A stretch of 32,110 bases of DNA from Solirubrobacteraceae bacterium (GCA_019683665.1 JADGIB010000003.1:1-32110); one strand, 5' to 3'. Positions 27,876 through 32,110 are shown, counted from the stretch's first letter. The notes: generated by a model not told the origin, from the letters alone. Numbers and translations: made by a program.

Positions 27876-28964
27876 ATGTACCGAGCGGAGGTCGTCGGGT
27901 CGATGCTGCGGCCCTCGTACCTGATCGAGGCGCGCAACGCGCTCGAGGCGGGGACGCTGAGCGCGGCCGAGTTCAAGCGCATCGAGGACCGCGCCGTCGA
28001 CCAGGTGATCGCCGTGCAGGAGGCCTCCGGGGTCGAGGTCGTCACCGACGGCGAGATGCGCCGGTTCATGTTCATGGGCCCGATCACCGAGACGGTCGAG
28101 GGCATCGAGGTGGTCGAGCACGGCAACCCGATGCCGTGGGCCAACCCGGAGGGCGAGCTCGACTGGGTGCTGGAGACCGCGGTCACCGGCCCGCTGCGCA
28201 AGAAGCGCTCGCTCGTCGCCGAGGAGTACAGCTACGCCCGCGCGCGGGCGCGCACGCCGCTGAAGGTCACCGTCCCCAGCCCGCTCATGCTCTTCGGGCT
28301 GTGGAACCCGCGCTACACGACGGCCGTCTACCAGGACGCGTTCGAGATGTTCGCCGCCGGCGCCGAGATCGGGCGCTCGGAGATCGAGGAGCTCGTCGCG
28401 CTCGGCTGCGAGTACATCCAGGTCGACGCGCCGGAGCTGGCGACGCTCGTCGACCCGCGCGTGCGCGAGTGGGCCGAGGAGCGCGGGATGCCGCCCGAGC
28501 GGATGCTCACCGAGGGCATCGACATCATCAACTCGATGGTCGACGGGATCACCGGCGTGCGCTTGGCGATCCACCTGTGCCGCGGCAACAACGCCGGCAT
28601 GTGGATGGCCAGCGGCGGCTACGACATGATCGCCGAGGCCCTGTTCAAGCGCGCCCACGCGTTCGACGCCTACCTGCTCGAGTACGACGACGAGCGCTCC
28701 GGCAGCTTCGACCCGATCGCGCAGGCGCCCGACGCCAGCCAGGTCGTCCTCGGCCTCGTCTCGACGAAGCGCCCCGAGGACGAGTCGCGCGAGGCGATCG
28801 CCGGCCGCATCGACGACGCCGCCCGCCGCTTCCCGCGCGAGCAGCTCGGCGTCTCCACCCAGTGCGGGTTCGCCTCGGTCGTCTTCGGCAACCCGATCAC
28901 GCAGGAGGACCAGGAGCGCAAGCTGCGGCTCGTCGCCGAGGTGGCCGAGACCGTCTGGGGCTGA
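27876..28964 (+). CDS. MetE C-terminal-like (cobalamin-independent methionine synthase II family) zinc protein
   Basis: SD GGAGGGGAG; MYRAEVVGSMLRPSYLIEAR; VVTDGEMRRFMFMGP; AIHLCRGNNAGMWMASGGYDMIAEALF; STQCGFASVVFGNPIT: putative HxC...E...C zinc ligands of the MetE fold. Confidence 0.85.
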   Translation: MYRAEVVGSMLRPSYLIEARNALEAGTLSAAEFKRIEDRAVDQVIAVQEASGVEVVTDGEMRRFMFMGPITETVEGIEVVEHGNPMPWANPEGELDWVLETAVTGPLRKKRSLVAEEYSYARARARTPLKVTVPSPLMLFGLWNPRYTTAVYQDAFEMFAAGAEIGRSEIEELVALGCEYIQVDAPELATLVDPRVREWAEERGMPPERMLTEGIDIINSMVDGITGVRLAIHLCRGNNAGMWMASGGYDMIAEALFKRAHAFDAYLLEYDDERSGSFDPIAQAPDASQVVLGLVSTKRPEDESREAIAGRIDDAARRFPREQLGVSTQCGFASVVFGNPITQEDQERKLRLVAEVAETVWG

Positions 28965-29073: not shown

Positions 29074-30909
29074 ATGGCATCGACGACGCCCGCCACCGGG
29101 TCCTTCCCGAGCCCGTACGAGGTGGAGACCCTGCCCGGCTGCGAGGGCTGGGAGGAGATGTACCCGTACTACGGCCGCTTCCTGGAGTCGCGCCGGGAGG
29201 CCGACGAGGGCCGGTTCTGGTTCTGGAACTCGATGCACTTCCCCGAGCCGATGCCGGCCTTCGACGTCATCTGCATCGACTCGCCCTACCAGGGCATCGG
29301 CTCGTGGCAGAACCGCGTGTTCGCGGTGCCGCCGGCGATGGGCATCGACTGGCGCGTCGTCAACGGCTACATCTACATCACCGGCAACCCGGTCCTCGAC
29401 CCGGAGAAGGTGGCCGAGCGCGCCGAGGTCTTCCAGAAGCGCGCCGGCTACTACTACGAGAACTGGGACGAGCTCTACGGCACGTGGCGCTCGAACATGG
29501 AGCAGCTCATCAAGGAGCTGTCGGAGCTCGAGGTCCCGGACCTGCCCGAGTACGAGCCGGACGAGGTCGTCCGCGGCGAGCAGAACACGAGCTTCTACCG
29601 CGTGCAGGACGCCTACAGCCGCACGCTGCGGATGGGCGACCTCATGTGGCAGCACCACTTCGAGCTGCTGCTGCTCGGCTACGGCGCCTACCAGACGCTC
29701 GCCGAGTTCTGCAAGGCGAACCTGCCCGACATCCCCGACCAGCACATCGCGCAGATGGTCGCGGGCATCGACGTCATCCTCTTCCGCCCCGACCAGGAGC
29801 TGCGGCGCCTGGCCCGGCTGGCGATCGAGAAGGGCGTCGACGGCGCCTTCCGCCAGGGCCGCACGCCGGAGGAGATCGACGCCGAGCTGGCCCAGTCCGA
29901 GGCGGGCCGGGAGTGGCTGGAGGAGCTCGAGAAGGTCAAGGAGCCGTGGTTCCACATGGCCACCGGCGACGGCCTCTACCACTTCTACCGCTCGTGGCTG
30001 GACGAGCCGGCGATCCCGTACGCGTCGCTCATCGGCCACGTCGCCGCGCTCCGGGCCGGCCAGGAGATCGAGCGCCCGACCGAGCAGATCCGCGAGGAGC
30101 GCGACCGGCTCGCCGACGGCTACCGCGAGCTGCTGGACGAGTCGCAGCGCAGGACGTTCGACGACCTGCTGAACCTGTCGCGCCGGGTGTTCCCGTACGT
30201 CGAGGAGCACAAGTTCTTCTGCGACTACTGGTTCCTCACGAGCTGGTGGAACAAGATCCGCGAGTTCGGCGCGCTCCTGGCCCGTCACGGGTTCCTCGAG
30301 GACGGCGAGGACGTCTTCCACCTGACCCGCCACGAGGTCGCCTCCGCGCTCGACGAGCTGACGCTCACCTGGGCCACCGGCGGCCAGCCCGCGGGCCCGA
30401 GCCACTGGCCGCCGATCGTCGCGCGGCGCAAGGAGATCCTCGAGCGCTTCAAGCAGTGGAACCCGCCGCCGGCGCTCGGCACCCCGCCCGAGAAGGTCAT
30501 GGACCCGACGCTGATCATGCTCTGGGGCATCACCGACGAGCGGATCCGCGACTGGGCCAGCCAGGTCGAGGGCGGCTCGACGCTGAGCGGGGCGCCCGCC
30601 TCGCCGGGCACGGTCGAGGGCGTCGCCCGGGTCGTGCGCTCGGTCGACCAGATCGGCGACGTGCGCGAGGGCGAGATCCTCGTCTGCGGCGCGACGTCCC
30701 CGGCCTGGGCGCCGATCTTCTCGAAGATCTCGGCGACCGTCACCGACGTCGGCGGCGTCATGTCGCACGCGGCGATCGTCTGCCGCGAGTACGGCCTGCC
30801 GGCCGTCGTCGGCACCGGCCGCGCGACCGCGACGATCAAGACCGGCCAGCGCGTGCGCGTCGACGGCACGAACGGCGTCGTCACGATCCTCGAGGACGCC
30901 GATGGCTGA
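29074..30909 (+). CDS. PEP-utilising-enzyme mobile (swivelling phosphohistidine) domain protein with a large N-terminal acceptor domain; phenylphosphate-synthase-alpha/rifampin-phosphotransferase-like
   Basis: SD AAGGAGGAG; C-terminal SGAPASPGTVEGVARVV...EGEILVCGATSPAWAPIFSKISATVTDVGGVMSHAAIVCREYGLPAVVGTGRATATIKTGQRVRVDGTNGVVTIL with phospho-His at codon 30766-30768. No PEP/pyruvate barrel follows. Confidence 0.9.
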   Translation: MASTTPATGSFPSPYEVETLPGCEGWEEMYPYYGRFLESRREADEGRFWFWNSMHFPEPMPAFDVICIDSPYQGIGSWQNRVFAVPPAMGIDWRVVNGYIYITGNPVLDPEKVAERAEVFQKRAGYYYENWDELYGTWRSNMEQLIKELSELEVPDLPEYEPDEVVRGEQNTSFYRVQDAYSRTLRMGDLMWQHHFELLLLGYGAYQTLAEFCKANLPDIPDQHIAQMVAGIDVILFRPDQELRRLARLAIEKGVDGAFRQGRTPEEIDAELAQSEAGREWLEELEKVKEPWFHMATGDGLYHFYRSWLDEPAIPYASLIGHVAALRAGQEIERPTEQIREERDRLADGYRELLDESQRRTFDDLLNLSRRVFPYVEEHKFFCDYWFLTSWWNKIREFGALLARHGFLEDGEDVFHLTRHEVASALDELTLTWATGGQPAGPSHWPPIVARRKEILERFKQWNPPPALGTPPEKVMDPTLIMLWGITDERIRDWASQVEGGSTLSGAPASPGTVEGVARVVRSVDQIGDVREGEILVCGATSPAWAPIFSKISATVTDVGGVMSHAAIVCREYGLPAVVGTGRATATIKTGQRVRVDGTNGVVTILEDADG

Positions 30910-31984
30910 GGCGCCGCTGACCCAGACGCTCGACGCGCTGCGCAGCGCCGACGAGCCGGCGTTCGGCGGCAAGAGCGCGAGCCTCGGTCAGATGCTGTCG
31001 GGCGGGATCCCGGTCCCGCCCGGCTTCGCCCTCTCGACCGCGGCGTTCCACGCGTTCGTGCGCGAGTCGGGCCTGCAGCGGACGATCGACGACGCGCTCT
31101 CGCACATGACCGTCGGCGACGTCGACTCGGTGTCGGCGGCGTCGCGCACGATCAGCGAGGCGATGCGCTTCGCGCCGGTCCCGGCCGCGGTCGAGGAGGA
31201 GATCGCCGCCCGCTACGCGGAGGTCGCGAAGGCGGCCGGGCAGGAGGAGCCGCCGGTCGCCGTCCGCTCCAGCGCGGTGGGGGAGGACAGCTCCGAGGCG
31301 ACGTTCGCCGGCCAGCAGGAGACGTACCTGTGGGTCCGCGGCGTCGAGCACGTCTGCGACGCGGTCCGCGACTGCTGGGTGAGCCTCTTCAGCCCGCCCG
31401 CGATCAGCTACCGGGCGCGGCTGGCGTCGGCGCCCGAGCCGGCGATGGGCGTCACCGTCCAGCTCATGGTCGACGCCGCCGTGTCGGGCGTCATGTTCAC
31501 CTGCAACCCGGTCAGCGGCGACCGCTCGATGATCGCCCTGAACGCGTCCTGGGGGCTGGGGCTCGCCGTCGTCGGCGGCGAGGTGACCCCCGACGACCTG
31601 CTCGTCAGCAAGGTCACGGGCGAGGTCGTGCGCGAGCAGGTCCACAGCAAAGAGGTCGAGTACGTGCCCGACCCGCAGGGGCGCGGCGCGGTGCGCGTCG
31701 ACGTGCCCGCGGAGCGGCGCGACGTGCGCTGCCTCGACGACGCGGCGATCGCCGCGCTCGTCGACGTCGCCCGCCGGGTCGAGCGCTTCTTCGGCAGCGC
31801 CCAGGACATCGAGTGGGCGATCGCGCGCGGCGCGCAGCCGCCGGAGGGCGTCTACATCGTCCAGTCGCGGCCGGTGACGACGGCGCCGCCCGCCGAGAAG
31901 CCGCCGGCGCCCGCCGGCGGGGACGCCCTGTCGATGGTCATGGCCACGTTCGGCGTGAAGCCGGCGGGCGGCGGACAGCGCTGA
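30902..31984 (+). CDS. PEP synthase/PPDK N-terminal ATP-grasp domain protein
   Basis: 8-nt overlap with the upstream gene; FGGKSASLGQMLSGGIPVPPGFALSTAAF; VAVRSSAVGEDSSEATFAGQQETYLWV; VQLMVDAAVSGVMFTCNPVSGDRSMIALNASWGLGLAVVGGEVTPDDLLV; VYIVQSRPVT. Confidence 0.95.
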   Translation: MAEAPLTQTLDALRSADEPAFGGKSASLGQMLSGGIPVPPGFALSTAAFHAFVRESGLQRTIDDALSHMTVGDVDSVSAASRTISEAMRFAPVPAAVEEEIAARYAEVAKAAGQEEPPVAVRSSAVGEDSSEATFAGQQETYLWVRGVEHVCDAVRDCWVSLFSPPAISYRARLASAPEPAMGVTVQLMVDAAVSGVMFTCNPVSGDRSMIALNASWGLGLAVVGGEVTPDDLLVSKVTGEVVREQVHSKEVEYVPDPQGRGAVRVDVPAERRDVRCLDDAAIAALVDVARRVERFFGSAQDIEWAIARGAQPPEGVYIVQSRPVTTAPPAEKPPAPAGGDALSMVMATFGVKPAGGGQR

Positions 31985-31989
31985 GGTCG

Positions 31990-32110
31990 ATGGCGCTCAC
32001 CGACGAGGACGTCCGCGAGATCCTGCGGATCATCGACGAGTCGCAGGTCGACGAGCTGCGCCTCGAGCGCGACGGGCTGTCGCTGCACGTCGCCCGCGTC
32101 GGGGTGACGC
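31990..32110 (+). CDS. Biotin carboxyl carrier protein (AccB)-like N-terminus, partial
   Basis: MALTDEDVREILRIIDESQVDELRLERDGLSLHVARVGVT resembles the AccB N-terminal pattern (LIxLVEESxIxELEIxEGxxSVRIxR); truncated by the window end. Confidence 0.6.
   Translation, partial: MALTDEDVREILRIIDESQVDELRLERDGLSLHVARVGVT

What the first reader, a model, noticed from the sequence alone, without database searches (positions are those of the whole stretch)
29074..32110. Split ATP-dependent dikinase (phenylphosphate-synthase/RPH-like) followed by a BCCP-like gene: candidate undescribed activation-carboxylation module
Seen: a 611-aa protein with an N-terminal aromatic-rich domain (e.g. FWFWNSMHFPEPMPAFD, EHKFFCDYWFLTSWWNK) ends in a phospho-His swivelling domain (GGVMSHAAIV). 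The next ORF overlaps it by 8 nt and is a separate 360-aa ATP-grasp protein. Five nt later an AccB-like N-terminus starts. Established: phenylphosphate synthase of Thauera aromatica has a ~70 kDa His protein and a ~40 kDa ATP-binding protein that together phosphorylate phenol before carboxylation, and rifampin phosphotransferase fuses ATP-grasp, acceptor and His domains. Neither has a PEP/pyruvate barrel, and none is seen here. Inference: the pair phosphorylates a small hydroxylated, possibly aromatic, compound using ATP to AMP + Pi. The BCCP-like neighbour, in place of the CBS gamma subunit of the Thauera enzyme, hints at coupling to a biotin-dependent carboxylase or an acyl-carrier-like partner. 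The acceptor is unknown.
Basis: partly seen in the sequence, partly recalled or inferred. Interest (0 to 1): 0.75.

Follow-up and report, generated by a model that had tools for sequence, protein, structure and literature searches.

The report
Hydroxyacetophenone (Hpe) pathway kinase genes
The window ends in the first genes of a known bacterial pathway that uses ATP to phosphorylate a lignin-type aromatic ketone and then adds CO2 to it with a biotin enzyme; here it sits in an uncultivated actinobacterial lineage, so it is a new member of a recently described pathway rather than a new kind of system.

Summary
In detail: a 611-aa phospho-His protein (29074-30909), a 360-aa ATP-grasp protein (30902-31984) and, 5 nt on, the first 40 codons of a BCCP. 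The contig stops at 32110. The rest of the system is in the same genome on other contigs: BCCP 3' end-carboxyltransferase-HAD phosphatase on C180, and BCCP 3' end-biotin carboxylase on C123. In relatives these genes form one operon (H-I-BCCP-BC-CT-HAD). This is the hydroxyphenylethanone (Hpe/Acv) pathway, described in 2022: HpeHI phosphorylates 4-hydroxyacetophenone/acetovanillone, HpeCBA carboxylates the phospho-ketone, HpeD removes the phosphate. The ATP-grasp protein's best PDB match is HpeI itself (9GOJ, 46% identity); the His protein folds like rifampin phosphotransferase. Trees reject grouping it with the CreH or PpsA types. The genome has PobA and PcaGH but no VanA_C match, so 4-hydroxyacetophenone is the likeliest substrate (inferred). 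New are the host range (Solirubrobacterales, Rubrobacter, Thermomicrobium) and a side observation: in 21 of 60 homologous clusters a UPF0261 (Tm-1-like) gene stands in place of HpeHI, never both.

The parts
29074..30909 (+). HpeH/AcvA-like subunit (611 aa): acceptor-binding region (residues ~10-500) and C-terminal swivel domain with catalytic His565 (motif GGVMSHAAIV)
   Evidence: PF00391 and PRK08296.1-5 matches; AlphaFold model pLDDT 86.5 whose best PDB fold matches over ~600 columns are rifampin phosphotransferase; 65-78% orthologues beside carboxylase genes
30902..31984 (+). HpeI/AcvB-like ATP-grasp subunit (360 aa), overlaps the preceding gene by 8 nt
   Evidence: PF01326 E 9e-99; best PDB match 9GOJ = HpeI of Rhodococcus rhodochrous GD02, E 7e-79, 46% identity over 317 aa
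31990..32110 (+). N-terminal 40 codons of a biotin carboxyl carrier protein (HpeC-like), cut by the contig end
   Evidence: 65% identical to the BCCP N-terminus of the G076 operon; BCCP 3' ends with the biotin motif EVMKMMN lie at the edges of C180 and C123 of the same genome

Best explanation
The window carries the first genes of an Hpe/Acv-type pathway. Shown by sequence: the two dikinase subunits, the start of a BCCP, and, on other contigs of the same genome, a pyruvate-carboxylase-type carboxyltransferase, a biotin carboxylase and a NagD-like HAD phosphatase. Inferred from the characterised homologues: the ATP-grasp subunit binds ATP, His565 of the swivel domain takes up the beta-phosphoryl group (ATP to AMP + Pi) and passes it to the phenolic OH of a 4-hydroxyphenyl methyl ketone. 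The biotin carboxylase then carboxylates biotin on the BCCP, the CT transfers CO2 to the ketone's methyl group, the HAD enzyme removes the phosphate, and a CoA ligase plus an amidohydrolase-type hydrolase release a hydroxybenzoate and acetyl-CoA. Likeliest substrate: 4-hydroxyacetophenone, feeding PobA and the protocatechuate branch of the beta-ketoadipate pathway.
For: P0003's best solved relative is HpeI, 9GOJ. Syntenic operon H-I-BCCP-BC-CT-HAD in G076, G003 and many Solirubrobacterales/Rubrobacter genomes, followed by an HpeE-like ligase in several. A Rhodococcus plasmid cluster whose HpeI is 97.6% identical to 9GOJ has the same order H-I-BCCP-BC-CT-D-E-F. The same genome holds CT+HAD (C180, 71% and 54% to the G076 genes), BC (C123, 72%), HpeE-like (C410, 62%), HpeF-like (C321, 62%), and PobA with PcaGH (C230), and has no VanA_C match. 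AU tests reject grouping of the Solirubrobacteral H proteins with the Cre type (p 8e-5) or Pps type (p 0.0016), but not a clade of all carboxylase-linked H proteins including the Rhodococcus HpeH (p 0.09; 0.54 with paralogue L031). The CT keeps the Asp, Lys and HxH positions of oxaloacetate decarboxylase/pyruvate carboxylase, but the Arg of their LLRG segment is Thr in all eight sequences, as expected if the substrate is not pyruvate (the role of that Arg is from memory). Enzymology of HpeHI, HpeCBA and HpeD: PMC9618137, PMC12167813.
Against: Physical linkage of the window to C180 or C123 is not shown. Those two contigs each carry their own BCCP 3' end, so the carboxylase genes may be split between two loci. 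The characterised type of Rhodococcus HpeH is only 49% identical and its exact place in the tree is unsure. The substrate is inferred from genome content only; the MAG is 96% complete and other O-demethylases were not searched.
Confidence: 0.82

Rival explanations
1. Same chemistry (phenol phosphorylation, then biotin-dependent carboxylation of a ketone side chain) but on a substrate other than 4-hydroxyacetophenone/acetovanillone, for instance a syringyl, longer-chain or differently substituted phenolic ketone.
For: Window H is 49% and I 46% identical to the characterised Rhodococcus type; Solirubrobacterales form their own clade in both H and CT trees; homologous pathways differ in substrate preference (PMC13101465).
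Against: PobA and PcaGH in the same genome fit a 4-hydroxybenzoate product; the same accessory ligase and hydrolase families are present.
Confidence: 0.13
2. Phenylphosphate synthase (PpsABC) of anaerobic phenol carboxylation.
For: Homologous split H and ATP-grasp subunits in the same order; H is 46% identical to the Azoarcus sp. KH32C protein that lies beside ppcBDAG.
Against: No CBS-domain gamma gene and no ppc/UbiD genes next to it; the third gene is a BCCP. Grouping with the Pps-type protein rejected, p 0.0016.
Confidence: 0.03
3. A stand-alone phenol or antibiotic kinase (CreHI-like or RPH-like) whose BCCP neighbour is incidental.
For: RPH is the closest solved fold of the H subunit; a Cre-type H protein occurs in a relative (L037).
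Against: Conserved operon with BCCP, BC, CT and HAD in many genomes; Cre-type grouping rejected, p 8e-5; Cre clusters have P450, SDR and ferredoxin neighbours and the order I-H.
Confidence: 0.02

Closest known systems
Hpe pathway, hpeHICBADEF of Rhodococcus rhodochrous GD02 (PMC9618137, PMC12167813); near-identical HpeI in the Rhodococcus sp. JS3073 plasmid cluster (L141)
   Same: Same set of genes: split dikinase, BCCP, biotin carboxylase, PC-type carboxyltransferase, NagD-type phosphatase; ligase and hydrolase homologues also present in the genome; same order in relatives of the window.
   Different: 46-49% identity; catalytic His preceded by Ser (GGVMSHA) where GD02 HpeH has Cys580-His581; in this genome the BC and the CT+HAD genes lie on two contigs, each with its own BCCP 3' end; no VanA_C match.
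acvABCDEF of Sphingobium sp. SYK-6 (as cited in PMC9618137)
   Same: Six-gene equivalent for acetovanillone/acetosyringone, homologous and syntenous to hpeHICBAD according to that paper.
   Different: Sequence not available here for direct comparison; SYK-6 lacks HpeE/F and uses VceA/VceB instead (PMC9618137).
Phenylphosphate synthase PpsABC (Thauera type; here Azoarcus sp. KH32C, L160)
   Same: Two-component dikinase, H-I order, homologous subunits.
   Different: Has a CBS gamma gene and UbiD-type phenylphosphate carboxylase instead of a biotin carboxylase; tree grouping rejected.
CreHI (4-cresol kinase; here the Cre-type clusters L161, L162)
   Same: Homologous split dikinase with Ser-His motif.
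   Different: Order I-H, P450/SDR/ferredoxin neighbours, no carboxylase; tree grouping rejected.
Rifampin phosphotransferase (RPH, 5FBT/5FBU)
   Same: Closest solved fold of the H subunit (TM up to 0.62 over the query), same three-part logic.
   Different: Single fused chain; ~20% identity; antibiotic acceptor.

Membership tests
Hpe/Acv pathway | Adjacent HpeH (acceptor + swivel) and HpeI (ATP-grasp) genes without a PEP/pyruvate barrel | tested here: met
   HpeI 9GOJ is the best PDB match; fold of H matches RPH
Hpe/Acv pathway | Catalytic swivel His in T/SxxGGxxxH | tested here: met
   TDVGGVMSH, His565, invariant in 27 aligned sequences
Hpe/Acv pathway | BCCP gene directly after HpeI | tested here: met
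   Only its first 40 codons are in the window; complete in syntenic relatives, with the Biotin_lipoyl domain
Hpe/Acv pathway | Biotin carboxylase and PC-type carboxyltransferase in the same genome | tested here: met
   BC on C123, CT on C180
Hpe/Acv pathway | Carboxylase genes in the same operon as the kinase | tested here: inconclusive
   Met in relatives; in this genome the contig ends inside the BCCP gene and no contig-end overlap was found
Hpe/Acv pathway | NagD-type HAD phosphatase (HpeD) next to the CT | tested here: met
   C180:1737-2543, PF13344 + PF13242
Hpe/Acv pathway | Phosphorylation of hydroxyphenylethanones and carboxylation of the phosphorylated form only | not testable with these tools
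   Needs enzymology
Phenylphosphate synthase PpsABC | Third, CBS-domain gamma gene and ppc (UbiD-type) carboxylase genes adjacent | tested here: not met
   BCCP instead; contrast Azoarcus L160; UbiD not searched genome-wide
Phenylphosphate synthase PpsABC | H subunit groups with PpsA | tested here: not met
   AU p 0.0016 against, one Pps-type reference only
CreHI | H groups with CreH and lies by a P450 | tested here: not met
   AU p 8e-5; no P450 adjacent
PEP synthase / PPDK | PEP/pyruvate-binding barrel | tested here: not met
   No such Pfam match in either subunit; the compact PPDK fold matches cover only ~120 columns

The most novel reading that the evidence does not exclude
The Solirubrobacteral enzyme set acts on a phenolic ketone outside the known 4-hydroxyacetophenone/acetovanillone/acetosyringone range, with a carboxylase assembled from two loci (kinase-BCCP-CT-phosphatase in one, BCCP-biotin carboxylase in the other).
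Probability: 0.15. Interest if true: 0.45.

Novelty: new member of a known kind. Interest (0 to 1): 0.35.

Why it matters
It widens a pathway reported in 2022 from few bacteria to a broad set, including uncultivated Solirubrobacterales, Rubrobacter and Thermomicrobium, and suggests that these lineages degrade lignin-type aromatic ketones. It also gives thermophilic and deep-branching sources of an enzyme set of interest for lignin conversion. The family survey uncovered a possible replacement of the kinase by an uncharacterised protein family (UPF0261), which can be tested directly.

Tried and rejected
Extending the contig: not possible, the window is the whole of C340. Joining the window to C180 or C123 by end overlap: no overlap; the C123 edge carries a Nextera-adapter-like stretch, read by eye. 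MetE-like gene 27876-28964 as part of the module: rejected as not conserved beside the kinase (only two other loci, L073 and L077, have one within reach). PEP synthase, PpsABC and CreHI memberships rejected as tabled. A literature check of the pyruvate-binding Arg found nothing useful.

Full report
What is there. The window is a complete 32,110-bp contig (C340) of a 3.56-Mb, 435-contig genome assembly. At its 3' end lie, on the + strand, a 611-aa ORF (29074-30909), a 360-aa ORF overlapping it by 8 nt (30902-31984), and an ORF starting 5 nt later (31990) that runs off the contig after 40 codons. The first has a single Pfam domain, the PEP-utilising mobile (phospho-His) domain at 531-601; the second is a PPDK_N ATP-grasp domain over nearly its whole length; no PEP/pyruvate barrel is present. 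NCBIfam places the first in a subfamily called only 'hypothetical protein' (PRK08296.1-5, 906 bits against a cut-off of 578).

What it is. The ATP-grasp protein's best match among solved structures is 9GOJ (E 7e-79, 46% identity), which is HpeI, the ATP-grasp subunit of the hydroxyphenylethanone dikinase of Rhodococcus rhodochrous GD02 (PMC12167813). The other subunit, modelled from an alignment of 27 sequences (pLDDT 86.5, pTM 0.87), matches rifampin phosphotransferase over about 600 columns (E 5e-19 to 5e-16, TM up to 0.62), whereas the compact PPDK matches cover only about 120 columns. This is what was reported for HpeH. In GD02 the two proteins phosphorylate 4-hydroxyacetophenone and acetovanillone; the biotin-dependent carboxylase HpeCBA carboxylates only the phosphorylated ketones; HpeD, a NagD-type HAD phosphatase, then removes the phosphate (PMC9618137).

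The rest of the system. In relatives the three genes are followed by biotin carboxylase, a pyruvate-carboxylase-type carboxyltransferase (CT) and a HAD phosphatase: complete in G076 (L026) and G003 (L027), and in many named Solirubrobacterales MAGs and Rubrobacter taiwanensis, often with an acetoacetyl-CoA-synthetase-like gene next. The Rhodococcus sp. JS3073 plasmid cluster, whose HpeI is 97.6% identical to 9GOJ, has the same order, H-I-BCCP-BC-CT-D-E-F. In the window's own genome the CT (71% to G076) and HAD gene are on contig C180 behind a BCCP 3' end, and the biotin carboxylase (72%) is on C123 behind another BCCP 3' end. The two BCCP 3' ends differ, so the genome has two BCCP genes. The nearest starred tree neighbours of the window's H protein, L085 and L068, also have no biotin carboxylase between the kinase genes and the CT, so the layout H-I-BCCP-CT-HAD (window joined to C180) is my best guess; it is not proven.

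Placement. On a tree of 51 H proteins the window sits in a clade of carboxylase-linked proteins. Forcing the Solirubrobacteral group together with Cre-type proteins (P450-linked, L161/L162) or with a Pps-type protein (beside ppcBDAG, L160) is rejected (p 8e-5 and 0.0016). A clade of all carboxylase-linked H proteins including the Rhodococcus HpeH is not rejected (p 0.09, or 0.54 when the paralogue L031 is included). Some groups were chosen after seeing the tree, and the Rhodococcus and Pps rows are long branches. The CT family keeps the Asp, Lys and HxH positions of oxaloacetate decarboxylase and pyruvate carboxylase, but the Arg of their LLRG segment is Thr in all eight sequences. From memory that Arg contacts pyruvate, so its loss fits a different substrate; the literature search for this found nothing.

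Substrate. The genome has homologues of the Hpe ligase (C410, 62% to the ligase of the G044 operon) and of the CouO/HpeF-type amidohydrolase (C321, 62% to the Rhizobium gene), a PobA above its curated cut-off and PcaGH in one protocatechuate cluster on C230, and no VanA_C match. The HpeE homologue lies away from the cluster and could be an ordinary acetoacetyl-CoA synthetase. Together this points to 4-hydroxyacetophenone via 4-hydroxybenzoate rather than acetovanillone via vanillate. This is inference from gene content in a 96%-complete MAG.

Novelty. The module is known. [quoted passage not shown] its main text does not mention Solirubrobacter (its supplement was not seen). The survey here kept 80 CT relatives out of 371 confirmed, spanning Solirubrobacterales, Rubrobacter, Thermomicrobium/Sphaerobacter, Streptomyces, Burkholderiales, Rhodobacterales and sphingomonads. 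So this is a new member and a wider distribution, not a new kind.

Side finding. In 60 CT loci with enough sequence on both sides, 30 have the HpeHI-type H gene on the same strand, 21 have instead a UPF0261 (Tm-1-like) gene, none has both, and 9 have neither on that strand, of which 5 have an H gene on the other strand. On the CT tree the labels change 9 times. Seven independent pairs differ in H; UPF0261 goes the opposite way in 4-5 of them and the same way in none (sign test p 0.06-0.13, too few to be decisive). The UPF0261 clusters include two plasmid clusters in strains I recall as bisphenol A degraders (P. putida YC-AE1, S. yanoikuyae YC-JY1). Non-homologous replacement of the kinase is a plausible reading; no paper in the held library links UPF0261 to this.

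Noticed in passing
L143:5874-7121, L142:4945-6150, L080-L084, L086-L087, L091-L092, L094-L096, L098, L101-L102, L106, L108, L115-L116, L118, L121, L127, L129-L130, L133: A UPF0261 (Tm-1-like ATP-binding) gene stands in HpeCBA-D-type clusters that lack HpeHI; 21 UPF0261 only, 30 HpeH only, 0 both among 60 loci. Possible unrelated replacement of the phenol kinase.
   Followed up: partly
L144:1020-12768 (Rhodococcus oxybenzonivorans pRB98), L051 and L052: A third cluster layout: a fused dikinase, a ~500-aa protein without any Pfam match, an AMP ligase and a distant CT (35-40% identity); L144 adds BCCP, BC, a thiolase and a phosphatase, while L051 has hydantoinase-like genes. The L051/L052 CTs lack the Lys of the CT motif (LYLKD becomes LFYD). 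Function unknown.
   Followed up: no
27876-28964: MetE C-terminal-like (PF01717, PRK06520-like) 362-aa gene directly upstream of the kinase genes, same strand; a similar gene lies near the cluster only in L073 and L077. Role unknown.
   Followed up: partly
L040:1-272 and L058:2938-3298: Two different BCCP 3' ends in one genome, one followed by the CT and one by the biotin carboxylase, at contig edges; the L058 edge carries a Nextera-adapter-like stretch.
   Followed up: partly
L141:7275-10359: In the JS3073 cluster, near-identical to GD02 in HpeI, biotin carboxylase precedes the carboxyltransferase, whereas Table 1 of PMC9618137 lists the carboxyltransferase gene (hpeB) before the biotin carboxylase gene (hpeA) by locus number.
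   Followed up: no
L068:6163-10275 and L073:5124-10111: Shortened clusters: H directly followed by CT and HAD (L068), and H-I-CT-HAD without BCCP or BC between (L073).
   Followed up: no
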